Origin: a virus | DNA: 42,122 nt | Virus record (IMG/VR): IMGVR_UViG_3300018481_000036 | Span: 1-42,122 of that record | Reading direction: 5' to 3' (one strand) | In this document: positions 5,625-42,122 of the stretch, piece after piece | How the letters are laid out: each line of letters opens with the position of its first letter | Position numbering within the stretch: the stretch's first letter is position 1 | Notes under the pieces: generated by a model | The model's input: the letters and a program-made list of their open reading frames with translations, nothing else | Told to the model about the DNA's origin: nothing | Database searches by the model: none | Program-made: the position numbers and the translations under genes

Positions 5625-6275
5625 ATGCTAAAGTATCTACTAGCAACAACGGCAGCAATTAGTATGTTTGTGCTCGCGCCAGGAGCACACGCTGCGGTTA
5701 TTGCCGCTTTCTCGCAAGTATCGCCTACTAATACAGTAGTAGCTACCGATAACAGTGTTACTACCAACATTGTTATTGACGATGCCGTTACAAATGTATC
5801 TACATTTGGCGGTGGTGGTGCGCTAACTACTTATTTCAGCCTAAATTCTACTAGCACTGATGCTGCGGTACAGGTAGGTGGTGCGGTAATTCAGCACTAT
5901 GACGGAACGTTTTGTTTTACTTCCGCGATTAACTGTGGAGGCACTAATTACCTCACAGGTGTTTTTGATGATGCAGCGTTTGGTGCCCTTGGTGGACCGG
6001 GACTAGTTGTAAATGTAAACAATCCACCGGATGCACTAACACTCACATCCGATATTATTCCGGCGATTGATCTGCAACCACCTAGCAGTTTTTCATTGGC
6101 GTTTACTAATCTAACGCCAGTGCTTTCTATTGATGGCGCAACAATCAATGGATTTACTGCCGCTTTTGCTGGTGTTGTTAGTGCAAGCACTGGTACTGAT
6201 GTGCCCGAGCCAGGAGCATTGGCAATACTTGGCCTAGGACTAATGGGCCTTGCTGGCGTGAAGTATCGCAAGTAA
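5625..6275 (+). CDS. PEP-CTERM sorting-signal protein (phage-encoded)
   Basis: A 216-residue secreted protein. It begins with a signal peptide (positive MLK, hydrophobic core, cleavage after PGAHA). It ends in a textbook PEP-CTERM tail at residues 193-216: VPEPGAL, a hydrophobic segment ILGLGLMGLAGV, then basic KYRK. In bacteria this tail is processed by an exosortase in the inner membrane, and the proteins go to the surface or the exopolysaccharide matrix. The middle is Thr/Ser/Gly/Val-rich, low in charge, with one Cys pair, and is not recognised. It has its own ribosome binding site (AGGGGAAAA) and its stop overlaps the portal start. Base composition and CTA/CTAG use match its neighbours, so it is integrated into the phage operon. 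A host gene cluster is not visible. Confidence 0.88.
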   Translation: MLKYLLATTAAISMFVLAPGAHAAVIAAFSQVSPTNTVVATDNSVTTNIVIDDAVTNVSTFGGGGALTTYFSLNSTSTDAAVQVGGAVIQHYDGTFCFTSAINCGGTNYLTGVFDDAAFGALGGPGLVVNVNNPPDALTLTSDIIPAIDLQPPSSFSLAFTNLTPVLSIDGATINGFTAAFAGVVSASTGTDVPEPGALAILGLGLMGLAGVKYRK

Positions 6276-29139: not shown

Positions 29140-30200
29140 TGTCATCATGGTTTGATCGTTTCGTAAAGACTTGGGCTAACACTGGTGTATCTACTGATCC
29201 TAGTGATGCGCAAGCTAACGCAGGATTTTCGTTTCTTGGAGCGGCACCACCATCCGTTGAATTATTCAATGCGATGTTTAAGTGGAACGATCAGAAAGAT
29301 ACTTACTTATATAATCAAATGGCGAGCGTCTTTGCTTGGGGTGGCCAGACTGCCAGTGAAACTAATCCCAATACATTACGCGATGCTATTATTGCCAAGC
29401 AACGTATTGTGTTGACTGCTGATACTATCCTCTATGTTGATGTAGCTGGTAACGATACCACGGGCAACGGCTCAATTGGCAATCCGTGGAGGACTATTCA
29501 GTACGCTTATAATTATGTTCTCAATTGGCTGGATCTTGCTAATCACTGGGTGGTTATACAACTTAAGTCTCCTGGCGTATATGCAGCTTGTGATTTTCAA
29601 GTTGCCATTGGTAACGGCGCAATACATCTAACTGGCGATAAGTTGAATCCGAAATTATATATCATTCGCAACGTTAATGGTGCGGCAGTTGGTGTGCAGC
29701 AAGGTGTTGTATTGCATTTGTCTGGGATAGCGATTGAAGCGACTGGACTATCTGCGCCGCAGATTGGTGATCCTGGCGGTTGGGGACTTATTGTAGTGCG
29801 TGCGGGTCTTTGTTTCATTGATGCCGTGGCATTTGGCAACTGCACCCTTAGCCAAATGATAGCTGCTGAAGGTGGTGTGATTTGGCCAATGAAAAAGAAC
29901 GCCACTATTATTGTATATGGTAATCCATTAACGGCTGGTCATGCAGTAGCCCACAGCCAAAACGCTGGCAATGTGGTGTTAGTTAGTATGGTGGCTACGT
30001 TTGAAGGCGCTAGAGCAGGTGTATTTGTTACTGCAACTGTTGCTGGTGTTGTGCAGTGCTATGACTTTACTTATACTGGAAACATAACGGGTAAGAAATG
30101 GACTATTTGGGCGAATGGTGTGCTTAATGGCGGTGGACAATCAGCGTCATTGCCAGGAACCCTTGCTGGAGAGATTTCAACTGGTGGACAAGTAATCTAG
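29139..30200 (+). CDS. Tailspike-like beta-helix protein
   Basis: A 353-residue protein. The first 80 residues look like an adaptor. ILYVDVAGNDTTGNGSIGNPWRTIQYA (near 98-125) is the typical entry into a right-handed parallel beta-helix of tailspikes, followed by Val/Gly-rich beta repeats. No clear catalytic triad. It may bind or cleave surface polysaccharide. Confidence 0.7.
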   Translation: MSSWFDRFVKTWANTGVSTDPSDAQANAGFSFLGAAPPSVELFNAMFKWNDQKDTYLYNQMASVFAWGGQTASETNPNTLRDAIIAKQRIVLTADTILYVDVAGNDTTGNGSIGNPWRTIQYAYNYVLNWLDLANHWVVIQLKSPGVYAACDFQVAIGNGAIHLTGDKLNPKLYIIRNVNGAAVGVQQGVVLHLSGIAIEATGLSAPQIGDPGGWGLIVVRAGLCFIDAVAFGNCTLSQMIAAEGGVIWPMKKNATIIVYGNPLTAGHAVAHSQNAGNVVLVSMVATFEGARAGVFVTATVAGVVQCYDFTYTGNITGKKWTIWANGVLNGGGQSASLPGTLAGEISTGGQVI

Positions 30201-30207
30201 GAGACTT

Positions 30208-30414
30208 ATGATGTCTGACAATAGCGACGATATCAATCAGCGCCCACCAGTATTAACTGGTGAATGGTTCCCTGATATTACTAGACTAGAACGGTTGCGA
30301 ATGAAAGCTGATATTGCATTGGGTAGAATACCAGCGCCGGAAGGTTGGGTAGATGAACCGGAAATAGAGTTGCCGATTAGACCTGTATCCGGATTTACTG
30401 TTGTCGATGAGTGA
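30208..30414 (+). CDS. Small protein, unknown
   Basis: A 68-residue acidic protein (DNSDDINQRPP, ITRLERLRMKADIALGR, PEIELPIRP). No membrane segment. It lies between the tailspike and a small membrane protein, and its end overlaps the latter. ATG ATG double start; the ribosome binding site is GGAG. Confidence 0.6.
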   Translation: MMSDNSDDINQRPPVLTGEWFPDITRLERLRMKADIALGRIPAPEGWVDEPEIELPIRPVSGFTVVDE

Positions 30415-30619
30415 CAAACCACCACTCATTAATGGTAATGGTAACACTATCATTAAGCTTGGTAGTTCTATTGTTAATGCACTAACACCACAGTATTTGG
30501 CGTTGATTATTGTTAATGTCGTTTCTTTGTTCTTACTCTATTGGTTCGTTGATGCTAGAGCAAAATATACGGTGGACCTTATTAACAAGTTGTTAGCGCA
30601 ATGTTTGCAAAACAAATAG
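30407..30619 (+). CDS. Small single-span membrane protein, holin-like candidate
   Basis: A 70-residue protein. Residues 1-24 are polar, YLALIIVNVVSLFLLYWFV is a membrane segment, and a charged C-terminal helix follows. ATG at 30407 is preferred to TTG at 30401. Size, topology and place among virion-fibre genes allow a holin or lysis role, but no lysin gene is next to it, so this is tentative. Confidence 0.55.
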   Translation: MSDKPPLINGNGNTIIKLGSSIVNALTPQYLALIIVNVVSLFLLYWFVDARAKYTVDLINKLLAQCLQNK

Positions 30620-30628
30620 GAGAATGTC

Positions 30629-30964
30629 ATGCCTGCAACGTTTAATACTACCATTCCATTTACCATCGAAGTAGCAGTAACAGTCAATGATACTGTTACA
30701 CTATACTTCAATGGTGATCCAGATGGACCGATCAATATGACTGCGGTGCCCACTGACAATAGTGGCACAGTCGTTGCTAATATTACTGCGATTACTGCTA
30801 CTGGCACGCCGTATACCCATCCAATTACCATGACTGGCACCGATGCTAATAAATTCTCACTAACTAACGGCGGTGTGCCACCATGTAATTTGGTTATTGG
30901 TGCTACTGATCTAACCGAAGGCGTGCATACAGGTTCACTAACATTTAAGGCACCGAAGCCATGA
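30629..30964 (+). CDS. Small beta-sandwich (Ig-like) protein
   Basis: A 111-residue Thr/Val-rich protein (AVTVNDTVTLYFNGDPDG, TGTDANKFSLTNGG, GVHTGSLTFKAP) with the alternating pattern of an Ig-like domain used as phage surface decoration or carbohydrate binder. It overlaps the next gene as ATGA, suggesting they act together. Confidence 0.6.
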   Translation: MPATFNTTIPFTIEVAVTVNDTVTLYFNGDPDGPINMTAVPTDNSGTVVANITAITATGTPYTHPITMTGTDANKFSLTNGGVPPCNLVIGATDLTEGVHTGSLTFKAPKP

Positions 30965-32760
30965 GCGATACTATCATTGAATATAACATTGCAGTAACAG
31001 CAACTGAACCCCTCCCGCCAGGAGAAGTGCAAGCAACAGTAACGATTGGTGATGTAAGTTTTGTATTTAATCCGGAGGATGGCGCACAACTAGAAAGTTA
31101 TTGTGATCCAGCAGGTAAATTTGAACAAGCCAATGTATTGTGTCTGGTTTCATCTGCGCCAAATGCTCGGGTTTATTATCGTCCCGATATTATGAGTGAT
31201 CGCGAAGAATGGGTATTTGAATTTGGCGATCCATGGAATCAACTAGCTACAAATCTAGGCGCATATACAGTAAAGATTAAAAAGCGTGATGGTAGTGAAG
31301 TAATACTACAAGTACCAGAACACTTCCATTTGTCACGTTGGCGTTGGCAATCTGAAGTAAGGCCAGTGCGTAAGACGGTAGAAGAACTAATTCAAGCGAA
31401 ATTGGTGCCGCATTATGATGGTTCGGTATTGTCGCGGTATGCCAATGATTACAACCCCAAAACCTATGCTATCATGCGTCTAGCTGGTATCTATCCTAAC
31501 CAAGCTACCACTGGCGAACGAGCCGATATTGGTATCGTTACTGGTTGGCAATCAGATTATCTCTGTGTTGGTAGTAACCTACAAACGATACTAGATCAAG
31601 CTGAAGCTGGCGGCACACTAAATTGGCATGTGCGAGATCGGACTGGTATCGCACCAATGGATTTATTTGTGTATCCCAAAGCTACTATGTATTCATCTGG
31701 TAATGGTGCTGATCCTTACATCAAGCGAACCAGTTGTACTGTAGATGGAATGAAGATGGCTTACGATACTGGACATTCACCAGCCCAAGCCTATCTGCCG
31801 TTTCTACTAACAGGCGATCCGTATTACTTGGAAGAAGTACAATTCCAAGCAAACATGGATTTCTTGATGGACCCACCACAATCAAGGTATCGGAAGGTAG
31901 GTCGTTACTTAGCGTGGTCGATGCGTAACACGTTATATGCATTGGCAGCAACTCCTGAAAACGTTCCGGATTGGTTGTTACCGAAAAGTTATTGGCAAGA
32001 TCATCTAGATGGTTATCTCATTTGGGTGCAAGAAAAAATGGCATCGGGCGATCCGTTACATTTGATTGCGTCTGGTGGTTCGCAAGGTTCTCCTGGCATA
32101 CCCTCTGGTAGTTACTTTCCTGCATGGCAGGAAGATTTCTTGACTGCAATGTTTGCTATTGCAGTAAGAATGGGTAATGAAGATTGGATGGATGCGCTAA
32201 TCTGGAAACTAGATTGTACAGTTAATCGTGTTCACGCGGAATATTGGCCGTGGCCAAATCCAACATTGTATAATGCATTGTTCTGTTATGCTGCGACATT
32301 AGCGGAAGATTGTTCTGCTCAAGATATTACTATCGTTGTCGATCCTTGGCACAAACAACCTTGGCCTGATCCGCCATTTGAAATGAAGCTACAGGATGAA
32401 ATTACAACTGTTACTGGAATGAGCGGTAACATCTGGACACTAACTAGAACTAAACCAGTTGCCCATGTTGTTGGTCATCGGATACTTGGGCCAAAGTTTA
32501 AGTCATGGCAAGAATGTGCAGCGCGTAATGTTGCGGCAATTCCAGAGAAATTCCCTACTATGCCTGATGATCCAGAGGCATTGTATACTGCTGAACCTGG
32601 GACAGTTACTTACAATGCTTATACTCGCGGTGCATTAGCATTAGCAGTTGGAGAAAACATTCCGGCCGCAACTGAACCGTATAATTGGTTGCATGGTGAA
32701 TTTCTCGACTCGATATCAACACAATGGAAAGTAGAGCGTAAGTGGGCAATCGTTCCGTAA
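30961..32760 (+). CDS. Putative (alpha/alpha)-toroid carbohydrate-active virion protein
   Basis: A 599-residue protein. The first 120 residues are beta-rich. The rest has long repeated aromatic/acidic helical hairpins (DGMKMAYDTGHSPAQAYLP, YYLEEVQFQANMDFLMD, RYLAWSMRNTLYALA, AWQEDFLTAMFAIAVRMGN), resembling six-hairpin polysaccharide lyases or glycosidases. It would suit a depolymerase against the exopolysaccharide of a PEP-CTERM host. No catalytic residues can be named with confidence. Confidence 0.5.
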   Translation: MSDTIIEYNIAVTATEPLPPGEVQATVTIGDVSFVFNPEDGAQLESYCDPAGKFEQANVLCLVSSAPNARVYYRPDIMSDREEWVFEFGDPWNQLATNLGAYTVKIKKRDGSEVILQVPEHFHLSRWRWQSEVRPVRKTVEELIQAKLVPHYDGSVLSRYANDYNPKTYAIMRLAGIYPNQATTGERADIGIVTGWQSDYLCVGSNLQTILDQAEAGGTLNWHVRDRTGIAPMDLFVYPKATMYSSGNGADPYIKRTSCTVDGMKMAYDTGHSPAQAYLPFLLTGDPYYLEEVQFQANMDFLMDPPQSRYRKVGRYLAWSMRNTLYALAATPENVPDWLLPKSYWQDHLDGYLIWVQEKMASGDPLHLIASGGSQGSPGIPSGSYFPAWQEDFLTAMFAIAVRMGNEDWMDALIWKLDCTVNRVHAEYWPWPNPTLYNALFCYAATLAEDCSAQDITIVVDPWHKQPWPDPPFEMKLQDEITTVTGMSGNIWTLTRTKPVAHVVGHRILGPKFKSWQECAARNVAAIPEKFPTMPDDPEALYTAEPGTVTYNAYTRGALALAVGENIPAATEPYNWLHGEFLDSISTQWKVERKWAIVP

Positions 32761-32774
32761 GGAGATTACCAAAA

Positions 32775-32888
32775 ATGTCTTGCGGAACATGTGCGAAAAT
32801 TCGTGCTGGCTTCATAAGAATCATTTCGATTCCGACATATGTATACAAGCCGGTTATTAGACCACCTAAGCCAAAGGAGGCTAAGTAA
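32775..32888 (+). CDS. Short Cys/basic protein
   Basis: A 37-residue frame, MSCGTCAKIRAGF at the start and RPPKPKEAK at the end. GGAG lies upstream (32761-32764) with a good distance. It ends TAATG overlapping the next gene. The CxxC pair at residues 3-6 may bind a metal. Too short for routine gene callers. Function unknown. Confidence 0.6.
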   Translation: MSCGTCAKIRAGFIRIISIPTYVYKPVIRPPKPKEAK

Positions 32889-33088
32889 TGGGTCGCCGAG
32901 AAGATGCAGTGTTAGAGAATGATACTAGAATAGTCAGACTCAGTTTGACTAAAGAACAAATGAAACTACTGATTGACTATGCAGTGCGTAACGGTTTTGA
33001 ACGTAAAAACGCCACGCATAGTTGGGATGTGCAAGCCCAAAATGCCGCTGTTAAATGGGCTGTCATGTCTCGATTAGGCTTTGATTAA
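32888..33088 (+). CDS. Small protein, unknown
   Basis: A 66-residue protein, last on the + strand. Helical and charged (TRIVRLSLTKEQMKLLIDYAVRNG). GGAGG lies 10 nt upstream. It converges with the methyltransferase gene and overlaps its stop. It resembles small phage regulators but cannot be assigned. Confidence 0.65.
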   Translation: MGRREDAVLENDTRIVRLSLTKEQMKLLIDYAVRNGFERKNATHSWDVQAQNAAVKWAVMSRLGFD

Positions 33089-33663
33089 AGCCTACGAAAA
33101 ATAGTAATGACTCTGAAACGATGATTGGTAGATTTAACCATGCCAATCACTGCTTCTATGTCCCATTCATCTTTGCGATACATTGGTAATACTTGATCTA
33201 ACCAGACTACATGCGCGTTAGGATACAATCCATATAATGAATGAATTACTTTGTTACGTTTAATCATGGTAGTGCCGTAACGTTCTGCATCATCATTACT
33301 ATATGGTGGATCAGCTAACACTAAATCATATTGTTCTAGTGGAACATTCTTTAATGTCTGTGCGTCATCGACATAGGTAGGATTTAAGCCAGCTTGAATA
33401 TCAACTGTATCGCCAGGGAATTGATCTAATTCTACATGGCCAGAGAACAAATGGAGAATTCGTTTCTTATCAGGGAATAATGCTTTGATGCGGCGTAAAT
33501 ATGTTGGCGGATAACCACCATAATAATCCGATGCTACTCGGTAATTGTTACCCATAATCCAAGTGCCAACTACTCTACCATCATCGGCAATGAATAAACT
33601 AGCAGGGAAACCTGATACTTTTGCGTAATTGTTAATACGATCTTGCCATGTTAGTTCAGTCAT
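33085..33663 (-). CDS. Small DNA methyltransferase with DPPY motif
   Basis: A 192-residue protein with DPPYSN at 118-123, the catalytic motif IV of N6-adenine or N4-cytosine methyltransferases, and LHLFSG at 70-75 as a motif I-like region. It is short and has little space for a target recognition domain. Phages use such enzymes to protect DNA. Ribosome binding site GGAG precedes ATG 33663. Downstream of the repeat array on the same strand; a direct relation is not shown. Confidence 0.72.
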   Translation of the reverse strand: MTELTWQDRINNYAKVSGFPASLFIADDGRVVGTWIMGNNYRVASDYYGGYPPTYLRRIKALFPDKKRILHLFSGHVELDQFPGDTVDIQAGLNPTYVDDAQTLKNVPLEQYDLVLADPPYSNDDAERYGTTMIKRNKVIHSLYGLYPNAHVVWLDQVLPMYRKDEWDIEAVIGMVKSTNHRFRVITIFRRL

Positions 33664-33674
33664 ACTAACTCCTT

Positions 33675-33713
33675 AAAAACACTCCTGGCGTGATGGATGC
33701 CCCGCCAGGAGTG
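33675..33713. terminator. Hairpin terminator made from two octamers
   Basis: AACACTCCTGGCG at about 33678-33690 and CGCCAGGAGTGTT at 33703-33715 form a perfect 13-bp stem with a 12-nt loop. A-rich sequence precedes it on the methyltransferase side. On the - strand this makes AAAAAC downstream a T-type run. It isolates the array from the methyltransferase gene. Confidence 0.65.
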
Positions 33714-33738
33714 TTAGTTGTTATTCAAGTTTTTAGTC

Positions 33739-35487
33739 TAGTTCGCTTCGGTTACTGTCACTATCCCGCTGCATGACTCGTTCGTGCAGTTTGGCACTAT
33801 CGTAAGGAATGACTCGTTCTTCAGAGATGTTACTATCGGGGAATTTGACTCGTTCGCCAAACATGATACTATTACAGGCACTGACTCGTTACCAGACCTT
33901 GTTACTATTAACTGCGATGACTCGTTACCTTATTTTGTTACTATCAACTGAAGTGACTCGTTCTCCATAGTTGTTACTTATTTGACATGATAACTCGTTC
34001 TTCGGAGATGTTACTATCTAAGTCGATGACTCGTTCCCCGTGAATGGTACTATCGGGAATGTGACTCGTTCGTCGCGAATGTTACTATCAGTCAATATAA
34101 CTCGTTCCAATGACTTTGGTACTCTCTCAACCTATAACTCGCTCTCATACTTTGTTACTGTCAATGATGATTGGCTCACTACCAATTCATGATACTATCG
34201 GGGATGGTGGTTCGTTCCTCAAACATGTTACTATCGGAAGAGATGACTCGTTCACTCCATTTGTTACTATCACCGCCAATTAACTCATTCTTCTAACGTG
34301 GTACACTCGTGGAAAATGATTCGTTCTTAGAACCATGTTACTATCACGGGTAATAACTCGTTCGGCAGTGCTGGTACTCTTTCGAGATATGACTCGTTCC
34401 AACTGATTGGTACTAATTCAAGCGTCTTGACTCGTTCTAATGCTTTGTTACTATCGCGGACATTAACTCGTTCGAACGCTTTGTTACTATCGTGAGCTTT
34501 AACTCATTCAGAGGAGGTGTTACTATCTGGATTGATGATTCGTTCTCTCGCACTGTTACTGTTATCACGGATGACTCGTTCTCCTGAAATGGCACACTTC
34601 CTTTAAGTAACTCATTCCTTCATTATGGTACACTCACGGTTGCTGATTCGTTCATCGCCAATGTTACTATCTTGATACATTAACTCACTCTCACATACTG
34701 TTACTGTAATCGCCAATGGTTCGTTCGCTTAGGATGTTACTATCCAAACTTCTGACTCGTTCGCTCATTGTGGTACACTTCCTACAGATAACTCGTTCGT
34801 CCATTGTGGTACACTAGCGAGAAATGACTCGTTTACCTATTTTGGTACTATCCTTCAAAATAACTCGTTCGACCTATATGTTACTGTCACGCACTTTAAC
34901 TCGTTCGTGTCTATTGGTACACTCCACAGATATTAACTCGTTCGTCCATTATGGTACGCTCTGGCTAAGTAACTCATTCTCGGGGTATGGCACTATCGGA
35001 GCTTGTAATTCGTTCACTCTCATTGTTACTATCGAAGGCTTGTAACTCGTTCGCATCTCATGTTACTGTTGGTTCTGGTAACTCGTTCTCTTCTAATGTT
35101 ACTATCGTTCCTGTTAACTCGTTTCCTTTCTCTGGTACTATCGATTGTCACTAACTCACTCTCACAGTTTGTTACTATCTCTCTAGATGGTTCGTTCCTT
35201 TTTACTGGCACTCTTACGGCTTCTAACTAACTCGACAATCATGATACTATCAAACAGCGTGGTTCGTTCGTTCTTTATGGTACTCTCCTAGGGCACTAAC
35301 TCGCTACTTTTCCTTGTTACTATCAAGGAAGATGACTCGTTCACGAAAAATGTTACTATCACAAGTTTTGACTCGTTCTCCATACATGGTACTATCGATT
35401 GTAATAACTCGTTCTCATACATTGGTACACTTCTATGACCGTGACTCGTTCGTCTACAGTGGTACACTCGGTTAGCATGACTTTATC
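33739..35487. repeat. TIGR-like array: two alternating 9-mers with about 95 variable spacers, 36-bp period
   Basis: Two conserved 9-mers alternate. Type A is GACTCGTTC with variants AACTCGTTC, GATTCGTTC, GGTTCGTTC, AACTCATTC and AACTCACTC. Type B is GTTACTATC with variants GGTACTATC, GGCACTATC, GATACTATC, GGTACACTC and GTTACTGTC. I count 47 canonical A copies, starting at 33775 and ending at 35443, and 48 B copies from 33757 to 35461. Degenerate A copies lie at both ends (near 33740, and GACTTTATC at 35479). Start-to-start spacing is 18 nt in most steps (81 of 94), with 11 irregular B-to-A steps and 2 irregular A-to-B steps of 17, 19 or 20 nt. The 9-nt gaps all end in T but are otherwise different. 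This matches the 36-nt unit with two 9-nt spacers of TIGR arrays (Tandem Interspaced Guide RNA). Transcribed strand is not decided; the Tas gene upstream is on the - strand. Confidence 0.88.
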
Positions 35488-35518
35488 TTTGTAACAATAT
35501 TGTTGCTAAAGATAAAGC
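35480..35518. other. Long hairpin at the Tas-proximal end of the array
   Basis: CTTTATCTTT-GTAACAA (35481-35497) pairs with TTGTTGC-T-AAAGATAAAG (35500-35517), a 17-bp stem with one bulged T and one G-T wobble. It begins inside the last degenerate repeat. It may mark the array boundary, protect the precursor end or act as a leader hairpin. Confidence 0.65.
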
Positions 35519-35556
35519 AAATATTAACGTTAGTATAGCCAAGCAATGTTGTTTGA

Positions 35557-36405
35557 TCATGCCATAGGCCAATTCGGTGGCGCAAGGAAATGCGCGTGAC
35601 CAAGATGGTCAATGACATATGGCTTCGGCGGCGGCTCGTGGTAATGCAATTCATACATCACATGATGCAGATGTGACAAGAACAATTTTACTGCATAACG
35701 TTTTGCTCTTGCATGAATATGTGCTGGTGGTAGTTTGCCAGTCAAGTAATGCTTTTTTGCTTCAGTATCGGCCGCAAAGTTTTTTGTTGCCAGAATATGT
35801 TCCGCTTGCGAAGCAAATTGTAGTGCTTCGTTCTTCATAATCTCTTGTTGCTTACGCGCAAGATATACTTTGCCGTAAACATCGCTTTCCAAATACGATA
35901 CTTTAACAAAACTTTCCCCAATAATCCAGCACAGTCGTTTCAGCGAGCCATTCCATGGCCGCTTTTCTTTCTTATTCCATACAACTGTTGGATCTTGGCC
36001 AGCATAACGCCAAATATGCCCAACAGTTGGCGCTTTTGTTATGTCAATATGAGTAACTAACCCAGCCGAAATGATCGGACCAATACCAGTGATACTCCTG
36101 GCCCATTTGCTTGATGGATTAGTGTTACTGTATACATCTAACGCACGCGCTACTTGTTTCTCTAGTGTAGCGCGCTGATTAGTTAGCCAATCCAACACCA
36201 CATTGGGTTCTTTATTACTCTCTAACGTCCTAGTCTGGTGACTAGCGCGAATGCGATCCCGCTGCATTGCATAGTAACTGTCTACCAGAAATCTTACTTC
36301 CCGGTCAGATAGTGTGCGAGAAGCATTACGCAAATCTTTGGTTAGTCTGTCTATTGAACCAAGGATTTCGTTAATATCGAAGTCATTGTTAGTTGTTTCA
36401 CTCAT
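35557..36405 (-). CDS. Tas-like protein: Nop/IS110 C-terminal-type domain, no nuclease
   Basis: A 282-residue protein. Residues 1-95 are helical with a charged coiled coil. Residues 101-175 show SITGIGPIISAGLV (107-110 is GIGP), IWRYAGQDP at 131-139 and SLKRLCWIIGESF at 154-166. This is the pattern of the Tnp_20/Nop domain shared by IS110 transposases and box C/D Nop proteins. The IS110 RuvC-like DEDD N-terminus is missing, and no HNH or RuvC motif is seen, so it is best compared to TasA. It would bind the processed array RNA. The gene ends 70 nt before the array. The start overlaps the Arc-like gene by 8 nt. Confidence 0.78.
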   Translation of the reverse strand: MSETTNNDFDINEILGSIDRLTKDLRNASRTLSDREVRFLVDSYYAMQRDRIRASHQTRTLESNKEPNVVLDWLTNQRATLEKQVARALDVYSNTNPSSKWARSITGIGPIISAGLVTHIDITKAPTVGHIWRYAGQDPTVVWNKKEKRPWNGSLKRLCWIIGESFVKVSYLESDVYGKVYLARKQQEIMKNEALQFASQAEHILATKNFAADTEAKKHYLTGKLPPAHIHARAKRYAVKLFLSHLHHVMYELHYHEPPPKPYVIDHLGHAHFLAPPNWPMA

Positions 36406-36577
36406 AGTGTTCCGTTTCCTTCTCCGCCAGGAGCATTGATTGTGTTAGCCTTAGTGTTATTTCGCTATTAATTGTGCGAAATCCTTTCGTTGCTTCTTTA
36501 CTTAGAAATTCATACAATTCTGGCGTTAGTCGCACATGCACGCGCGGAAATTCTTTAGTTGTTGCTGGCCTACCCAT
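36398..36577 (-). CDS. Arc-like ribbon-helix-helix DNA-binding protein
   Basis: A 59-residue protein, beginning MGRPATTKEFPRVHVRLTPE and continuing with LYEFLSKEATKGFRTINSE. The short beta strand (PRVHVRL) followed by two helices is the Arc/MetJ fold, which binds DNA as a dimer. It overlaps the Tas start by 8 nt and the preceding regulator gene by 8 nt. Likely a repressor of the Tas operon or of the early genes. It is below routine length cut-offs. Confidence 0.75.
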   Translation of the reverse strand: MGRPATTKEFPRVHVRLTPELYEFLSKEATKGFRTINSEITLRLTQSMLLAEKETEHYE

Positions 36578-37010
36578 GTTGACTCCCCATTACAATGCCG
36601 GCATCTAGTATCATTCGAAACAATGCTGCGGCACTATCTATTGGTAAAGTAACGTCTAGTTTTATCCTAGCTTCTCCGTTATTACTAACAGTGAAACTCA
36701 ATACATCGGTCGGTTTACTGTTAACAGTCGGGTTAACAGGTGGTGATGTAGTAACGACTGCTGTAGTTAGTTTCTTTACCATTAGTTTACTTTCAGGTAT
36801 GCCGGTTCCTTGGGATAATAGGGCGCGATAATAAGGTGACGGTGCAAGCTTTCCGTTCAAGTATTGATATCCGGAAGAATAACTAGGATTTTTACCGATT
36901 ATTCTGTTAATATCTCTGGCATTTTTACCGTTAGCTCGGCACCATTCGCGTAATGATGTAGCAATTTCACCAAATTTTATAACTTCTTCCGGCGTTAGTG
37001 GCACTTTCAT
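36570..37010 (-). CDS. Putative HTH-type regulator
   Basis: A 146-residue protein. Residues 10-75 resemble an XRE-type helix-turn-helix (LREWCRANGKNARDINRIIG, SGYQYLNGKLAPSPYY). A Pro/Thr-rich linker follows at about 85-105. The C-terminal domain has FTVSNNGEARIKLDVTLP. It overlaps its neighbours at both ends (ATGA and 8 nt), so it is transcribed with the Tas gene. Function is inferred from fold only. Confidence 0.6.
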   Translation of the reverse strand: MKVPLTPEEVIKFGEIATSLREWCRANGKNARDINRIIGKNPSYSSGYQYLNGKLAPSPYYRALLSQGTGIPESKLMVKKLTTAVVTTSPPVNPTVNSKPTDVLSFTVSNNGEARIKLDVTLPIDSAAALFRMILDAGIVMGSQHG

Positions 37011-37273
37011 GCAACTCTCCTAATTCTATTGACCACGCCAGGAGCGGATCGTTGTTCTATTATAGTATAGTAAGCATCGCGCATTGCGGCTGTTAGTGTC
37101 TTCAATCCCATTTGGTATTGATTATCTAGTTTAGACTGCCATACCCAGCCTGTCAACAAGCGTAATTCGTTGGCAGATCGATTACGATTCCACGCTGCAC
37201 ACATATGTTTATCTAAGTAATGAAATCGCGCTACTTTGTTGATGTCTTTCTTTATTTCATTAGAAAAACGCAT
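37007..37273 (-). CDS. Small protein of the Tas operon, unknown
   Basis: An 88-residue Arg/Lys-rich helical protein (FSNEIKKDINKVARFHY, NRNRSANELRLLTGWVW). ATGA overlap with the downstream regulator and TAATG overlap with the upstream gene. Basic nature suggests nucleic-acid binding, but no family is recognised. Confidence 0.6.
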   Translation of the reverse strand: MRFSNEIKKDINKVARFHYLDKHMCAAWNRNRSANELRLLTGWVWQSKLDNQYQMGLKTLTAAMRDAYYTIIEQRSAPGVVNRIRRVA

Positions 37274-37437
37274 TATTTTGCTATCCTTTCTTCTAGATAC
37301 TCGATTAAGTATGTTGCATATCCGAGAATAAATGTATTACCCTCGAAAACAAACGTTTCGTTTCTTTTACAACCAAGTTTTATTAATCGTTCCACTTTAC
37401 TAGAGAAGCGATTTAGTGTTTTTCTGTCCCACTCCAT
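37273..37437 (-). CDS. Short protein of the Tas operon, unknown
   Basis: A 54-residue frame. It begins MEWDRKTLNRFSSKVERL, with a KRNETFVFEGNTF middle and an acidic helical end. Its stop overlaps the next start as TAATG, which supports it. It is too short for routine gene callers. Function unknown. Confidence 0.6.
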   Translation of the reverse strand: MEWDRKTLNRFSSKVERLIKLGCKRNETFVFEGNTFILGYATYLIEYLEERIAK

Positions 37438-37444
37438 TACTTAT

Positions 37445-37636
37445 TTACCCTTTGTGACAGTAAATTGTAGTATATCCCAAAGAATTCGTTTTGGTTAGGC
37501 ATTTAGTTCGTTTACCATCATGTTTCACATCGGTATGTATATACCCGAGTGAGTCACGGTAGCTGGTTGCTCTAGTATCTGCCAAAGCTACTCCTGGCGC
37601 AAGCGCCAGGAGTGCAACAATCATCGTTCGGATCAT
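37445..37636 (-). CDS. Small secreted protein
   Basis: A 63-residue protein with a signal peptide (IRTMIVALLALAPGVALA, cleavage near residue 20) and a mature part with two Cys (KCLTKTNSLGYTTIYCHKG), probably a disulfide. The signal peptide codons contain the octamer inverted repeat at 37591-37612. It would act in the periplasm or outside the cell. The start at 37636 overlaps the upstream gene. Confidence 0.68.
   Translation of the reverse strand: MIRTMIVALLALAPGVALADTRATSYRDSLGYIHTDVKHDGKRTKCLTKTNSLGYTTIYCHKG
37591..37612. repeat. Octamer palindrome inside a signal-peptide coding region
   Basis: CTCCTGGCGC and GCGCCAGGAG pair around AA, giving a near-perfect 10-bp hairpin. It lies in codons for the secretion signal of the 37445-37636 gene. 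Confidence 0.8.
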
Positions 37637-37995
37637 GTATCTATACCTTCTTGCACTAACTTGATAGTTTCATTATCAAATGAAGTAAACAAGTTATCAC
37701 TTTGTGGGCAATTATATTCGTTTGGATCGGCGATCTGAAATATTTCAGCAATCATATAAGCTGCGCCAAATTCCGTTTCGCCATTTGACCCTTCATATAT
37801 TGTTGCATAGATGGTATAATCTTCTTCGCCATCTATGTCAACGTTATTGTTGGCCCATACCTTGTCTTTCCATTGGCTGACTATAGCAGCGCGTGCCAAT
37901 GTATAGGGCATATCAGTATATACTAGAAAGTTAGGGTAACTTTGGCTTACGCCATCATTACCGTTGCCATAACTTACGCCATACCATCTTTTCAT
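37633..37995 (-). CDS. Small acidic protein, unknown
   Basis: A 120-residue acidic protein (WYGVSYGNGNDG, VDIDGEEDYTIYATIYEG). Start ATG 37995 follows AAGGAA with good spacing. A GTG at 38010 would add five residues and is less likely. It overlaps the secreted protein gene by a few nt. No family recognised. Confidence 0.6.
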   Translation of the reverse strand: MKRWYGVSYGNGNDGVSQSYPNFLVYTDMPYTLARAAIVSQWKDKVWANNNVDIDGEEDYTIYATIYEGSNGETEFGAAYMIAEIFQIADPNEYNCPQSDNLFTSFDNETIKLVQEGIDT

Positions 37996-37996
37996 T

Positions 37997-38200
37997 TTAG
38001 TTTCCTTCACATACTGCGGTATATACCGCGTCTAGTGGTCCGTCAATTAACTTGTCCAAAGCATCACCAGCCGCTGACATACCTGATATGTCCATATCAG
38101 CAACCAATTTATGCATCATGTCTTCTAGTTGCATAATACGCTCGATTGCCTGCTGGCGTGATATCTTACGCGGTGGCTTTATTCCGTCAATCAATTGCAT
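37997..38200 (-). CDS. Small helical protein, unknown
   Basis: A 67-residue protein (RQQAIERIMQLEDMMHKLV), probably a short coiled coil. Ribosome binding site GGAG followed by TATATACA before ATG, the same leader as three other early genes here. It follows the intergenic element at 38223-38279. Confidence 0.62.
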   Translation of the reverse strand: MQLIDGIKPPRKISRQQAIERIMQLEDMMHKLVADMDISGMSAAGDALDKLIDGPLDAVYTAVCEGN

Positions 38201-38222
38201 TGTATATACTCCGTTGTAGTGC

Positions 38223-38279
38223 CAAGCTTGCGCTTGCCAGCGTAACCTAGTTGCCTAGGTTACACTGGTAAAAGCAAGC
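38223..38279 (-). repeat. Intergenic structured element, copy a
   Basis: Read on the - strand it holds GCTTGC, a hairpin CCAG-T-GTAACCTAG with GCAA loop and its complement, then CAAGC-GCAA-GCTTG, a 5-bp stem with a GNRA tetraloop. The hairpin core pairs through GTAACCTAG/CTAGGTTAC. It sits after the stop of the 38281-38496 gene. Confidence 0.7.
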
Positions 38280-38280
38280 C

Positions 38281-38496
38281 TTATTCCTTACCCTTTCCCC
38301 AATCGATTGAATAGTCGCGATAGCTAGGCGGTTGATGTAGCATTTCTTCCATCATCGCTTCACATTCTGCGATTTTCAGACTGTAAAGCGATGCTTCTGC
38401 GCTAGTCGCGTGTGCCATGTTACGCGCTGCTATGTAATGCTCTTTCGCATCATAGAGAATTTCCAGCCGCAGTGTATCTTGTGTCACTTTTGCCAT
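38281..38496 (-). CDS. Small helical protein, unknown
   Basis: A 71-residue helical protein (HYIAARNMAHATSAEASLYSLKIAECEAMMEEML). Overlaps the end of the short membrane protein gene upstream. No family recognised. Confidence 0.6.
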   Translation of the reverse strand: MAKVTQDTLRLEILYDAKEHYIAARNMAHATSAEASLYSLKIAECEAMMEEMLHQPPSYRDYSIDWGKGKE

Positions 38497-38588
38497 TTGT
38501 ATATACCCTTAGAGAAAGCGTAGAGTAGCTTACCTATGATACCGAAAAGTAAGACCACTAGAGACAACGTTATTAGAGTTTCCATCAT
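38484..38588 (-). CDS. Short membrane protein
   Basis: A 34-residue frame: MMETLITLSLVVLLFGIIGK is an N-terminal membrane segment, then LLYAFSKGIYKWQK. AAGGAAA lies 7 nt before the ATG. It overlaps the next gene by 13 nt. Too short for routine callers. It might affect host envelope or lysis. Confidence 0.6.
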   Translation of the reverse strand: MMETLITLSLVVLLFGIIGKLLYAFSKGIYKWQK

Positions 38589-38612
38589 ATCAGTTTCCTT
38601 TGTTTAGTCTGC

Positions 38613-38676
38613 CAAGCTTGCGCTTGCCTATAGCTACTCCTGGCGTGGGCCAGGAGCGCCATAGGTAAATTCAAGC
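38613..38676 (-). repeat. Intergenic structured element, copy b
   Basis: Same tetraloop hairpin CAAGCTTGCGCTTG on the + strand (38613-38626). Its variable hairpin is CCTAT...CTCCTGGC/GCCAGGAG...ATAGG (38627-38665), built from the octamer. Located after the stop of the 38671-38835 gene. Confidence 0.68.
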
Positions 38677-38835
38677 CTTGTAAGTTAGGATCACTTTGTC
38701 AGCGTCGCGTAAAACATTCTGCAAATGTTTTAGCGAGTCCAAATGATCAGCATTTGCATTGTTCCGAATATACTCGGACAAACCATTCTCTAGAACAAGT
38801 TTCTGCCAGCCGATCAATTCAATTTGCCATGCCAT
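38671..38835 (-). CDS. Short helical protein, unknown
   Basis: A 54-residue frame. It begins MAWQIELIGWQKLVLENG and has a helical end (HLDSLKHLQNVLRDADKVIL). AAGG lies upstream and it begins 2 nt from the stop of the upstream gene. Below routine size limits. Confidence 0.6.
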   Translation of the reverse strand: MAWQIELIGWQKLVLENGLSEYIRNNANADHLDSLKHLQNVLRDADKVILTYKA

Positions 38836-38836
38836 G

Positions 38837-39043
38837 TTACTTGACCTTTACCAGCTTACCATCGGCCATAGTGCCTACCGCATACCAGCGATGGGGCTTG
38901 GGGTAGTGCGGTCCCTCTAGGGCAATGGTGCCATTGGTGGGCACAGTGCCTAAGCCGGGTTGAAAAACTTCAACCGTTCGGCCTAGGGCCAATGCGTCGC
39001 GTAAGGCTTTCTTACTAGTGAAATTGGGGCTTACATACGCCAT
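38837..39043 (-). CDS. Small protein, unknown
   Basis: A 68-residue protein (ATG 39043: MAYVSPNFTSKKALRDALAL) after AGGAAACTGACC. A longer upstream frame from 39229 would read through the large hairpin at 39095-39193 and is rejected. Beta and Gly/Pro-rich second half ends MADGKLVKVK. Confidence 0.6.
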   Translation of the reverse strand: MAYVSPNFTSKKALRDALALGRTVEVFQPGLGTVPTNGTIALEGPHYPKPHRWYAVGTMADGKLVKVK

Positions 39044-39094
39044 TAGGTCAGTTTCCTTGTTTAGTGTGAGATACTGGTAACCTAGGCCAACGAT

Positions 39095-39193
39095 AGGCCG
39101 GCTAGGATGGCCCCACACGGCGGCTGGACCATAGGGAGCTACCCCTATGGCCCAAACCATGTCAAAGCCGTGTAGCGCCATCCTAGCCGGCCT
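39095..39193 (-). ncRNA. Large nested hairpin element, 99 nt
   Basis: Outer arms AGGCCGGCTAGGATGGC (39095-39111) and its complement (39177-39193) give 17 perfect base pairs. Inner arms ACACGGC/GCCGTGT (39115-39121, 39167-39173) and CCATAGGG/CCCTATGG (39129-39136, 39143-39150) nest inside. No reading frame with a convincing ribosome binding site. Likely a structured non-coding RNA or processing element in the early operon. Confidence 0.65.
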
Positions 39194-39209
39194 AGCGTGG
39201 GGATGGCCC

Positions 39210-39452
39210 TTAGTGGGTCGTGCCACCATGGCCCTTGCGCGCCTCTAGAGCATCCAAGGCGGCTAGCAGCGCACGCGCCGCTACCTGGACAGCGTGCAAC
39301 TCTAGGATGGCGTCCACGGCTAGCATGGCGTCATCTAGCGTGGGCACGGTGGCCACCGGCTTGGTGTCCTCCGACCCAACGTGAATCAGCACAAGCTTAG
39401 GGAACGCTACCAGCGTGTGCCCACGGTAAGCATAAATTTCCATATCGAGCAT
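39210..39452 (-). CDS. Small protein, unknown
   Basis: An 80-residue protein with a beta N-terminus (DMEIYAYRGHTLVAFP, LVLIHVG) and an Ala/Leu-rich helical C-terminus (ALLAALDALEARKG). AAGG precedes the ATG at 39452. Much higher GC than the structural genes. Not recognised. Confidence 0.58.
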   Translation of the reverse strand: MLDMEIYAYRGHTLVAFPKLVLIHVGSEDTKPVATVPTLDDAMLAVDAILELHAVQVAARALLAALDALEARKGHGGTTH

Positions 39453-39513
39453 ATCATAACCTTTTCAGAATAAATAGCCGGGTAGGCTATCCGGTGCAAC
39501 ATGCACTGGTCAC

Positions 39514-39565
39514 AGCATCCCTAGCATCCTAGTTTCCTAGGATGCTAGGATGCTATGATCATAGC
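39514..39565 (-). terminator. Long hairpin plus palindrome between early genes
   Basis: AGCATCC-c-TAGCATCCTAG and CTAGGATGCTAGGATGCT pair (39514-39555, loop TTTC). GCTATGATCATAGC at 39552-39565 is a perfect 14-bp palindrome overlapping it. It lies downstream of the 39571-40173 gene on the - strand. Confidence 0.55.
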
Positions 39566-39570
39566 AGGTT

Positions 39571-40173
39571 TTAGTTCCCCCAAGGCAATGAAAATTTGTC
39601 GGCACAAATCGGGCCATAGCCTACCGATACCGATCTGCTATCCGTTAGCTCGCGAGCGCAGAAGCAACAGCTACCCGTAGCCTTGCCATAAGCCGCTGCT
39701 ACCCTGGCAGGATTAGCCGCGAAATTTACCAACAAGGCAGTGATAGCGGTGGCGGTAGCGGTATCCAGCTTGGCGCTGATATCCCACTGGCCAGCGGTAT
39801 CAACCCGCCCGTACCAGATGGCACTGCCGAAAGGCTTACCATCTGTTACGTTAACAGTGCCCGGTAGCCTAGCATTGGGGCCGGCTACTGCTAAGGCTAT
39901 CGGTCTGCCATCGGCAAGCTGTAGCCTGACCTTGGGATGCTTTAGCCGTTCACTTGCACCCTTAAACAAGGCTATCACGCCAGAAAAATCGCCTAGGCTC
40001 ACGCTAGCCGCCTTGGGCTTGCTAGCGTCTGCCACTAGCTTGCGCACCCAAAACATTTGCTTTTCTGACAAGCCGCGATCTTTCGCGTGCTCTAGTAGCG
40101 ACCGGGCAAACTCTTGCGACCGCGCGGGTAGTGTCGGCATGGCGTCTGCCAGTGCCTTAATGTCTTTGTCCAT
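39571..40173 (-). CDS. DUF6011-like zinc-binding protein
   Basis: A 200-residue early protein. The C-terminus GSCCFCARELTDSRSVSVGYGPICADKF has four Cys in the DUF6011 zinc-ribbon pattern. The middle has beta strands with the KVRLQLADGRPIALAV stretch. AAGGAAA precedes ATG 40173. Many phages carry such proteins near replication or transcription genes, role unknown. Confidence 0.7.
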   Translation of the reverse strand: MDKDIKALADAMPTLPARSQEFARSLLEHAKDRGLSEKQMFWVRKLVADASKPKAASVSLGDFSGVIALFKGASERLKHPKVRLQLADGRPIALAVAGPNARLPGTVNVTDGKPFGSAIWYGRVDTAGQWDISAKLDTATATAITALLVNFAANPARVAAAYGKATGSCCFCARELTDSRSVSVGYGPICADKFSLPWGN

Positions 40174-40174
40174 T

Positions 40175-40345
40175 TTAGCTTTCCTTTGTATCTTTTAGGT
40201 TTAGTTGCATTGCGGCATAGCTTGCTTCATCTTTGTTTAGCAAACGGGCGATAACAATTTTACCCGTTTGCCTATCCGTCACACTCCAAGTGTGCGATCT
40301 AGTTTGATCGCATACCGCAATGTAACGCATTGCCTTGCGTGCCAT
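40175..40345 (-). CDS. Small protein, unknown
   Basis: A 56-residue protein, start ATG 40345 with AAGGATAAA upstream. A start at 40378 would include the leader and is rejected. Beta-rich (IAVCDQTRSHTWSVTDRQTG). It ends just before the DUF6011-like gene. Confidence 0.6.
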   Translation of the reverse strand: MARKAMRYIAVCDQTRSHTWSVTDRQTGKIVIARLLNKDEASYAAMQLNLKDTKES

Positions 40346-40375
40346 TAGATTTATCCTTGTATATATTGACGTATC

Positions 40376-40435
40376 CAAGCTTGCGCTTGTGCTAATCGCC
40401 TAGGCGTTGCCTAGGCGGCTAGCAGAAAAGCAAGC
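40376..40435 (-). repeat. Intergenic structured element, copy c
   Basis: Same tetraloop hairpin at 40376-40389. Its variable hairpin is CGCCTAGGC/GCCTAGGCG with GCTA/TAGC. GCAAGC at 40430-40435 abuts the stop codon of the 40435-40698 gene. Confidence 0.72.
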
Positions 40436-40698
40436 TAGTCGTTATCAAACAAGCTAGCCGATACGCTGGCATAAACGCAAAGCTTGCCAGCGTAATCCGT
40501 ATAAGCTGACAGAACATAGCCGCGTGTGGACATGTAGCCGTTGGTGCCTTCGTCGCGCGCATCTTGCATAAGCTTGCGCGCATCGCATTCCATTAGGAAT
40601 AGCAAGCTGTCCAGCTTGTATCCTTTCATGTATTTGTTATGCTTTAGCACTGCTTTCGCAGTCTGGTTAAAGGTTCGCATATCATGATCATTTAGCAT
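40435..40698 (-). CDS. Early protein, unknown
   Basis: An 87-residue protein (MLNDHDMRTFNQTAKAVLKH start, YAGKLCVYASVSASLF end). It has a helical first half with mixed charges and a beta second half. Starts 5 nt from the upstream stop. It is not recognised as a known family. Confidence 0.62.
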   Translation of the reverse strand: MLNDHDMRTFNQTAKAVLKHNKYMKGYKLDSLLFLMECDARKLMQDARDEGTNGYMSTRGYVLSAYTDYAGKLCVYASVSASLFDND

Positions 40699-40702
40699 TG
40701 GT

Positions 40703-40888
40703 TTAGCCTTTCAGTTCGCAAGCTTTGATAAAGCGCACGCTGTCAAAACGCGGATTAGTGCCGCGCAATGCATCGGCTAGTTTCCACACGCAACGGTCCC
40801 ATTGCACCCACGCCGGGTTACTAGCATCCTCATTAGGTTGCGAGGCGCGCATGGTAGCTGCGATCAATTCGTAATCTTTACGTGACAT
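40703..40888 (-). CDS. Small early protein, unknown
   Basis: A 61-residue protein (KDYELIAATMRASQPNED, WDRCVWKLADALRG). CAAAGGAATATATA leads into the ATG. The Trp-rich WVQWDRCVWKL segment looks like small phage early proteins seen next to replication genes. Confidence 0.62.
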   Translation of the reverse strand: MSRKDYELIAATMRASQPNEDASNPAWVQWDRCVWKLADALRGTNPRFDSVRFIKACELKG

Positions 40889-40923
40889 TATATATTCCTT
40901 TGTATGTATTAGGTGATAGGCTT

Positions 40924-40978
40924 CAAGCTTGCGCTTGTGGCCGCATCTAGCAAGCTAGATGCTACCAGAAATGCAAGC
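40924..40978 (-). repeat. Intergenic structured element, copy d
   Basis: Tetraloop hairpin at 40924-40937. Variable hairpin GCATCTAG/CTAGATGC with a CAAG loop (40943-40962). GCAAGC (40973-40978) overlaps the stop codon of the 40978-41208 gene. Confidence 0.72.
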
Positions 40979-41208
40979 TATTGCGTGATAGCAGACACTT
41001 GCAGCAAGGCGGCTAGATCGTCCCTAGCCTGCTTTAGCTGACCGCGCTTGTACTGCTTGCCGGTATAGTATCCGGCCGTACGTAGCATGTTGGTCGGCGT
41101 GTAGGCTCGATTAGCCTTCATTCCGGTTTTGAGATAAAGATCAATTGCGTTTTTGATCACTATCACCACGTAGGTTGACACTTGCGCGCCGGTAAAAGTC
41201 TGTGACAT
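40978..41208 (-). CDS. Small early protein, unknown
   Basis: A 76-residue protein, start ATG 41208 after GGAGTATACACA. A longer upstream frame from 41280 lacks a ribosome binding site. Helical N-terminus (SQTFTGAQVSTYVVIVIKN) and a basic middle (YTGKQYKRGQLKQARDD). Not recognised. Confidence 0.62.
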   Translation of the reverse strand: MSQTFTGAQVSTYVVIVIKNAIDLYLKTGMKANRAYTPTNMLRTAGYYTGKQYKRGQLKQARDDLAALLQVSAITQ

Positions 41209-41221
41209 TGTGTATACTCCA

Positions 41222-41449
41222 TTAGCCCATAAACAAGCAGTCAGCGGCCAGCGTGCCAAAGATGCCGGCATACATCTCACATTGGTTCGGCGTCATATGC
41301 TCGGGTAGGCTATCCGCCAGTAGCTTCGCCTCTTGTTTGGTGATCTTTACCCACGCTTCTGATACGCCGAAACGCGGTCTAATGTAGATCGTGCTGGCCA
41401 CTTTAATCGCCAGCTTTAGGCTCGGTATCGTTGTGATTTCGTGTGACAT
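41222..41449 (-). CDS. First gene of the - strand early block, unknown
   Basis: A 75-residue protein, mostly helical (KLAIKVASTIYIRPRF, KLLADSLPEHMTPNQ). GGAGTATATACA precedes ATG 41449. The - strand genes should be transcribed from a promoter in 41450-42122. No family recognised. Confidence 0.62.
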   Translation of the reverse strand: MSHEITTIPSLKLAIKVASTIYIRPRFGVSEAWVKITKQEAKLLADSLPEHMTPNQCEMYAGIFGTLAADCLFMG

Positions 41450-41878
41450 TGTATATACTCCATTAGTTTCTAGCGTATGCTAGCCTTGTCAGCTTAGTTG
41501 GTCGGGGGAAATTGCCTTTTGTTCCATCTAAGATGCAACCGCCGTCGCTTTGTGCCTTGCGGCACCACTAGGCTACTAGGCTTTCGTCCCTCTGGCCAAC
41601 TAGGCTGACTAGGTTATCATAAGCTTTTAGATCGTTCCGCTCCCCACTTATTGGGAGCGGCGTACCGATCGGTACTCTCCGGCTGGGCCGGGTAGCGTGC
41701 GCGTTGTATGCGTCGCCTGGAATATGATCCCACTAGATTAGGTGCGGCTAGGTTTGGACGCTAGCAGCGTGATCTAGTGACAGGGTATCTCCTGCCAGTG
41801 CCTACCCCCAAGGTAGGCTTGCGCTTTGTTTGATCCCGGCTAGCGTGGCCGGCCTTTTCTTCTGCTTTCGTGATCTAA

Positions 41879-41954
41879 GATATAGCCGGCTAGTGGCGGG
41901 TATACAAGTGCTTTCTAGCACTAAATGGTGCCAGCTATATCACGATTTCGTGAT
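41879..41954. ncRNA. Structured element near the right end
   Basis: GATATAGC (41879-41886) pairs with GCTATATC (41934-41941). Inside is the hairpin AGTGCT/AGCACT with a TTCT loop (41907-41922). ATCACGA/TCGTGAT (41939-41954) forms an adjoining hairpin. It resembles a multi-arm RNA, but without tRNA anticodon or T-arm features. Confidence 0.45.
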
Positions 41955-42053
41955 CGCTACCGCCTAGGATCGCGCCTAGCGGGCGGGTAGCTCTAGACGG
42001 GTATCGGTGGCGGGTAGCTCGGGGGAACGCCTAGCCGGTGGCTTGCAGGCTCG

Positions 42054-42103
42054 GGGGATGGCCCTTGAACCAAGCTGGCGACGCCAGCTTGCCAGCCATC
42101 CCC
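42054..42103. repeat. Double nested inverted repeat
   Basis: GGGGATGGC (42054-42062) pairs with GCCATCCCC (42095-42103). Inside, CAAGCTGGC (42071-42079) pairs with GCCAGCTTG (42083-42091) around GAC. It may be a terminator, packaging or replication structure. Confidence 0.65.
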
Positions 42104-42122
42104 TAGGCTGTCAAGCACAAGG

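What the first reader, a model, noticed from the sequence alone, without database searches (positions are those of the whole stretch)
36398..37437. Tas-like gene is last in an overlapping operon with an Arc-like and an HTH-like regulator
Genes 37273-37437, 37007-37273, 36570-37010, 36398-36577 and 35557-36405 overlap by 1 to 8 nt each, so they are translated as a unit. An Arc-type repressor directly before the Tas gene suggests autoregulated expression of the RNA-guided system, which may not have been described. The two unknown small proteins could be Tas partners.
Basis: partly seen in the sequence, partly recalled or inferred. Interest (0 to 1): 0.75.

Follow-up and report, generated by a model that had tools for sequence, protein, structure and literature searches.

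The report
TasA gene in ordinary phage operon
A phage carries a known type of RNA-guided DNA-binding protein (TasA) and its guide array at the end of a chain of small overlapping genes, but most of those neighbours are ordinary genes of this phage family rather than dedicated partners of the RNA-guided system.

Summary
Five minus-strand ORFs overlap by 1, 4, 8 and 8 nt, and all are under purifying selection. The last encodes a true TIGR-Tas protein of the nuclease-free TasA type, followed by a TIGR array of about 48 units and a terminator. The chain is not a closed five-gene unit: it continues upstream of 37437, and the array lies after tas.

Among 89 other tas loci (41 tas clusters at 80% identity, window included), the Arc-like, HTH-like, 88-aa and 54-aa genes sit beside tas only in the two nearest phages. 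39 of the other 87 loci have an array near tas without them. The 88-aa and HTH-like genes also occur as an adjacent pair in three related phages with no tas, Arc-like gene or array detected, so they are family genes, not Tas partners. The Arc-like gene is found only with tas, but only in this lineage; autoregulation by it remains possible and untested.

No own-genome targets of the array were found. A genome-wide 8-9-bp motif (CTCCTGGC[G]), present in 10 of 10 Tas-less relatives counted, is the more unusual discovery and is listed under noticed items.

The parts
35557..36405 (-). tasA: TIGR-associated Nop-fold protein, 282 aa, no nuclease domain
   Evidence: NF052498 196.5 bits, cut-off 100; profile hits TasR 9mty 1e-23 and TasH 21kl 1.3e-12; AF2 model pLDDT 89.3, top Foldseek hits TasR and TasH
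33739..35482 (-). TIGR array: 47 complete parsed units plus a first unit with a 5'-truncated edge; about 36 nt per unit, edge GAACGAGTYA, loop GATAGTAACA or GAGTGTACCA, spacers mostly 8 nt (9 if the variable first repeat base is counted)
33682..33711 (-). terminator-like hairpin after the array, followed by T5; arms are the genome-wide CTCCTGGCG motif
   Evidence: -24.1 kcal/mol, z -6.5
36398..36577 (-). Arc-like (ribbon-helix-helix) protein, 59 aa, overlapping tas by 8 nt
   Evidence: PF03869 21.5 bits vs 20.4; dN/dS 0.19; beside tas only in L002 and L003
36570..37010 (-). HTH protein, 146 aa, lambda-repressor-like N-terminal domain; gene of the phage family
37007..37273 (-). 88-aa protein, gene of the phage family, paired with the HTH gene also in Tas-less relatives
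37273..37437 (-). 54-aa protein, no family; only in the window, L002 and L003
37445..37636 (-). 63-aa protein (N terminus looks like a signal peptide, by eye); continues the gene run upstream; not found in L002 or L003
37633..38010 (-). 125-aa protein continuing the overlapping run
37997..38200 (-). 67-aa protein continuing the overlapping run

Best explanation
The genes are the downstream end of the phage's leftward block of small genes. The HTH and 88-aa genes are members of the phage family. In this lineage an Arc-like gene, tasA and a TIGR array occupy the stretch just after them, where Tas-less relatives have other genes. One leftward transcript probably reads through the small genes, tasA and the array, and stops at the 33682-33711 hairpin. 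tasA translation is probably coupled to the Arc-like gene by the 8-nt overlap. The array RNA would be cut into about 36-nt tigRNAs bound by a TasA dimer, which would bind (not cut) DNA matched by spacer A on one strand and spacer B on the other. Shown here: gene order, overlaps, selection, family membership, array architecture, and absence of the neighbours from other tas loci. Inferred: cotranscription, coupling, processing, targeting and any role of the Arc-like protein.
For: TasA identity. Array with truncated end edges, orientation and terminator. Coding status. Neighbours beside tas in only 2 of 89 other loci. 101 representative upstream ORFs give no Arc or RHH Pfam match at E 0.01. The 88-aa/HTH pair in three Tas-less relatives; Tas 0 of 18, Arc-like 0 of 18 and array 0 of 18 in the Tas-less records of that set. 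Upstream neighbours differ even between tas genes 88-96% identical.
Against: No transcript or protein data. Virus records may be fragments (the 18 Tas-less records are 12.7-55.6 kb). Only 80 of 236 confirmed tas relatives were returned. The Arc-like gene occurs only beside tas (3 of 3), which a dedicated regulator would also give. The replaced-segment reading rests on gene order, not on an empty site aligned at DNA level.
Confidence: 0.78

Rival explanations
1. The Arc-like protein is an autorepressor dedicated to the tasA-array operon: it binds an operator upstream and limits TasA and tigRNA.
For: RHH family call, immediate overlap with tas, strong conservation (78% identity, dN/dS 0.19), found only with tas. 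Small phage RHH proteins often repress (general knowledge, recalled).
Against: Absent from other tas loci. No promoter-sized gap near 37440 and promoter-like sites not above chance. The conserved inverted repeat upstream (37591-37612; L002 5262-5286) belongs to a motif present in relatives without a detected Arc-like gene.
Confidence: 0.2
2. The Arc-like protein is a DNA-binding partner of TasA, an RHH counterpart of the published TasParB protein.
For: Published tasA loci are occasionally operonised with a parB-like gene (PMC12045711; passages, Discussion). The Arc-like protein's best PHROG (phrog_795, 7.5e-8) is labelled a partition protein.
Against: No ParB match in the window neighbours and no ParB family in the Pfam list for 101 upstream ORFs. 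Lineage-restricted. The PHROG label may describe another member.
Confidence: 0.08
3. All five genes form one functional TIGR accessory module (the small proteins are Tas partners).
For: Tight overlaps and shared conservation in L002 and L003.
Against: The 88-aa/HTH pair without tas in three relatives; tas without any of them elsewhere.
Confidence: 0.04

Closest known systems
TIGR-TasA systems (Faure et al. 2025, PMC12045711)
   Same: Nop-fold protein without nuclease, dual-repeat array on the same strand, about 36-nt units, truncated edge repeats at both ends, terminator after the array
   Different: The array is long (about 48 units; the paper says most often 5 to 15). An Arc-like gene lies directly upstream; the passages of the paper that I read do not mention one.
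tasParB-tasA operons (same paper)
   Same: tasA directly follows a gene for a small DNA-binding protein
   Different: The protein here is RHH (Arc-like), not ParB-like; no relation was tested beyond family scans
TasH of Salicola phage CGphi29
   Same: The only relative found among 50,697 annotated phage records (2 records of one phage, 25.7% identity over 73% of the query)
   Different: TasH carries an HNH domain (per the paper); the window protein has no HNH or RuvC match
Phage repressor HTH domains (lambda CI, TP901-1 CI)
   Same: N-terminal HTH fold of the 146-aa protein
   Different: The C-terminal part is not covered by these matches; no match has E below 0.001

Membership tests
TIGR-TasA | Nop-domain Tas protein | tested here: met
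   NF052498 196.5 vs 100 bits; Foldseek TasR/TasH E about 4e-6
TIGR-TasA | No HNH or RuvC nuclease domain | tested here: met
   No nuclease family in Pfam scan; 282-aa model of helices only
TIGR-TasA | Dual-repeat array with edge and loop repeats of 8-12 nt, about 9-nt spacers and about 36-nt units | tested here: met
TIGR-TasA | 5'- and 3'-truncated edge repeats with terminator after the array | tested here: met
   read; hairpin
TIGR-TasA | tigRNA processing and tandem-spacer DNA binding | not testable with these tools
   needs RNA-seq and binding assays
tasParB-tasA operon | parB-like gene next to tasA | tested here: not met
   No ParB match in neighbours
Arc / RHH repressors | Arc-like DNA-binding domain | tested here: met
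   PF03869 21.5 vs 20.4 bits, marginal; PHROG Arc-like repressor 6.8e-5
Arc / RHH repressors | Operator binding and autoregulation | not testable with these tools
   no binding or expression data
lambda-CI-like HTH repressors | Helix-turn-helix DNA-binding domain | tested here: inconclusive
   Fold similarity to many HTH domains, best E 3.7e-3; TP901-1 CI 3e-3; one of six members hits HTH_3 at 0.012

The most novel reading that the evidence does not exclude
In this phage genus the Arc-like protein is a dedicated partner or autorepressor of TasA, an RHH counterpart of TasParB, moving as one cassette with tasA and its array into the slot after the 88-aa/HTH pair and tying guide production to its own level.
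Probability: 0.15. Interest if true: 0.55.

Novelty: new member of a known kind. Interest (0 to 1): 0.3.

Why it matters
The biological role of nuclease-free TasA is open in the founding paper. This case narrows the search: TasA here has no widely conserved partner gene, its arrays change quickly between near relatives, and matched phages with and without the tas stretch exist, so what it adds can be tested. It also warns against reading gene overlap in a phage as functional partnership.

Tried and rejected
DNA near-match search of window 30000-42122 against annotated phages: no match. Protein searches of the HTH and Arc-like proteins in annotated phages: no match. Rfam: no match in the window. 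Direct viral-contig scan with the HTH protein confirmed nothing, although relatives appeared later through the motif route.

Self-targeting by the array was tested: 46 of 47 window spacer pairs (one dropped for spacer length) gave 0 hits with 0 or 1 mismatch in the window, and 8 with two mismatches against a mispaired mean of 4.4, maximum 6 (four gaps); with five gaps the two-mismatch count was 8 against a mean of 5.8, and with 9-nt spacers 0 against 0.07. I read this as no clear excess. Targets in 552 kb of Tas-less relatives: one-mismatch hits for the window array were 6 against a mispaired mean of 2.9 and maximum 5 with 8-nt spacers, and 1 against 0.13 with 9-nt spacers, a low-complexity ATCATC stretch. 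Two-mismatch counts were not raised. L002 and L003 arrays (33 and 35 of 41 parsed units each) showed no clear excess there. Not taken as a target. In the other tas loci the L002 and L003 arrays gave 7 one-mismatch hits each against mispaired means of 1.7 and 2.3 (three shuffles), and the window array 11 against 6.7; several of these are copies of one place in near-identical or repeated loci, and I did not follow them.

The idea that the Arc-like protein alone reads the CTCCTGGC motif was rejected because relatives with the motif have no detected Arc-like gene. A host-chromosome origin of the motif: its inverted repeat occurs in 1 of 399 genomes of one order and 0 of 4 tas-bearing genomes, so those groups gave no support; the host is unknown. 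A separate HNH gene upstream of tas in four loci was considered as a split TasH; it does not align with CGphi29 TasH and is patchy among close tas relatives, so a mobile homing-type endonuclease is likelier.

Full report
What is there. The five minus-strand ORFs are at the stated coordinates and overlap by 1, 4, 8 and 8 nt. Compared with the related phage contig L002, each shows purifying selection: dN/dS 0.12 (tas), 0.19 (Arc-like), 0.30 (HTH), 0.105 (88 aa), 0.13 (54 aa). The run is longer than stated: 37445-37636 ends 7 nt before 37437, and 37633-38010 and 37997-38200 continue the overlaps. Promoter-like sites in 33000-42122 (15) do not exceed the shuffled mean (16.2), and terminator-like sites under that scan's short-loop rule (5) do not either (8.7).

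tas and its array. The 282-aa protein matches NCBIfam TIGR_Tas at 196.5 bits against a cut-off of 100. A profile of 43 sequences finds TasR (1e-23), TasH (1.3e-12) and IS621 (4e-4) among solved structures. The AlphaFold2 model (pLDDT 89.3) has TasR and TasH as its ten best Foldseek matches. No nuclease family was found, so it is TasA-like. Downstream on the same strand lie 47 complete parsed units plus a first one with a truncated edge, then a hairpin of -24.1 kcal/mol (z -6.5) followed by T5. In the founding paper (PMC12045711; abstract, Discussion, figure legends, sections on arrays, targeting, nucleases and structure, and passages read) arrays most often have 5 to 15 units, and the functions of TasA proteins are called less apparent.

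Are the neighbours tied to tas? One search confirmed 236 tas relatives and returned the best 80; this gave 89 distinct loci after removing three repeats (L010, L011, L074), and 86 full tas ORFs, window included, fall in 41 clusters at 80% identity. Some loci remain near-identical to each other. A maximum-sensitivity phmmer search of 10,481 ORFs found Arc-like, 88-aa and 54-aa relatives beside tas only in L002 and L003 (2 of 89); the HTH gene also occurs in L085, but 5.5 kb from tas, and a weak L063 match (E 0.37) is ignored. Of the 87 other loci, 82 have at least 600 nt upstream of tas, and 39 have an array of at least four edge-like repeats near tas; diverged repeats elsewhere would be missed by that motif. 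From 84 loci, 101 representative upstream ORFs (of 103; the two from L002 left out) gave no Arc or RHH Pfam family at E 0.01. In PHROGs the 25 families shown of 51 contained no Arc family; the other 26 were not shown. Small RHH proteins can escape such scans. Apart from two large groups that I read as frames overlapping tas, its antisense or arrays, no neighbour family occurs in more than 5 of 41 clusters.

Relatives without tas. Following a repeated motif (below) led to 20 virus records, of which 18 have no tas, no Arc-like gene and no array pattern detected. In three of them (G009, G010, G013; terminase 65-76% identical) the 88-aa and HTH genes are adjacent as in the window. There they are followed by a short coiled-coil gene or a 74-aa gene, and further on by 337-, 167- and 282-aa genes. 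The window and the L002 and L003 stretches gave no match to those downstream genes. The simplest reading is that the 88-aa/HTH pair belongs to the phage family and that Arc-like gene, tasA and array occupy the next slot in one lineage. This is inferred from gene order.

Array behaviour. L002 and L003 are about 94% identical over 2.5 kb of the tas operon, yet their arrays differ by internal replacement and gain or loss of units scattered along the array. The window shares only one spacer with L002 (unit with TGATTGTC) and none with L003, although tas is 88% identical. No self-target was found, and no convincing target in relatives (counts under tried and rejected).

How it most likely works. 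One leftward transcript through the small genes, tasA and the array; translational coupling of tasA; tigRNA formation with TasA and a host RNase; DNA binding without cleavage. The last two steps follow from the published system, not from data here. The Arc-like protein may regulate the operon in this lineage; this is untested. A search for papers holding both 'TIGR-Tas' and 'ribbon-helix-helix' returned none; the review PMC12385481 was searched for operon, regulat, ParB and TasA and has no TasA or ParB mention. The library holds only open-licence papers.

Verdict. Observation confirmed; the interpretation that this is a dedicated autoregulated TIGR operon with small partner proteins is supported only in the weak sense that an Arc-like gene precedes tas in one phage lineage. 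It is a new member of a known kind.

Noticed in passing
whole window; e.g. 33682-33711, 37591-37612, 38637-38657: 8-mer CTCCTGGC occurs 43 times (0.65 expected) and 9-mer CTCCTGGCG 30 times (0.14 expected), with no clear flanking conservation. 32 of 43 copies lie in coding sequence. All 10 Tas-less relatives counted have 28-65 copies per 33-56 kb (0.4-0.8 expected). None of 66 other tas loci of 7 kb or more has over 5. Resembles a Chi-, uptake-sequence- or stoperator-like signal; function and host unknown.
   Followed up: partly
38223, 38613, 40376, 40924 (minus strand); L002 1409, 1951, 2489, 3920, 4366: Family of intergenic hairpins with fixed outer stem (GCAAGCGCAAGCTTG on the 3' side) and variable inner stem in the leftward gene block; 10 of 22 predicted pairs show compensatory change, though alignment gaps make some weak. 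No Rfam family.
   Followed up: partly
L013 77-310, L030 3043-3552, L034 5453-6016, L043 5489-6001: HNH_3-type endonuclease gene ends within 16 nt of the tas start (overlap 4-16 nt or 5-nt gap) in four diverged tas loci but was not found by this search in their close tas relatives; possible repeated insertion of a homing-type endonuclease before tas.
   Followed up: partly
L002 and L003 arrays: Near relatives differ by scattered internal unit replacement rather than at one end, which bears on how TIGR arrays change.
   Followed up: partly
35475-35520: Inverted repeat CTTTATCTTT...AAAGATAAAG between tas and the array, running into the first truncated edge repeat; not seen by eye in L002.
   Followed up: no
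5625-6275: Predicted phage protein with a C-terminal PEP-CTERM-like end (by eye) within the structural gene block.
   Followed up: no
33085-33663: DNA methyltransferase-like gene (phrog_3816, 8.6e-44) just after the array, absent from the L002 and L003 stretches.
   Followed up: no
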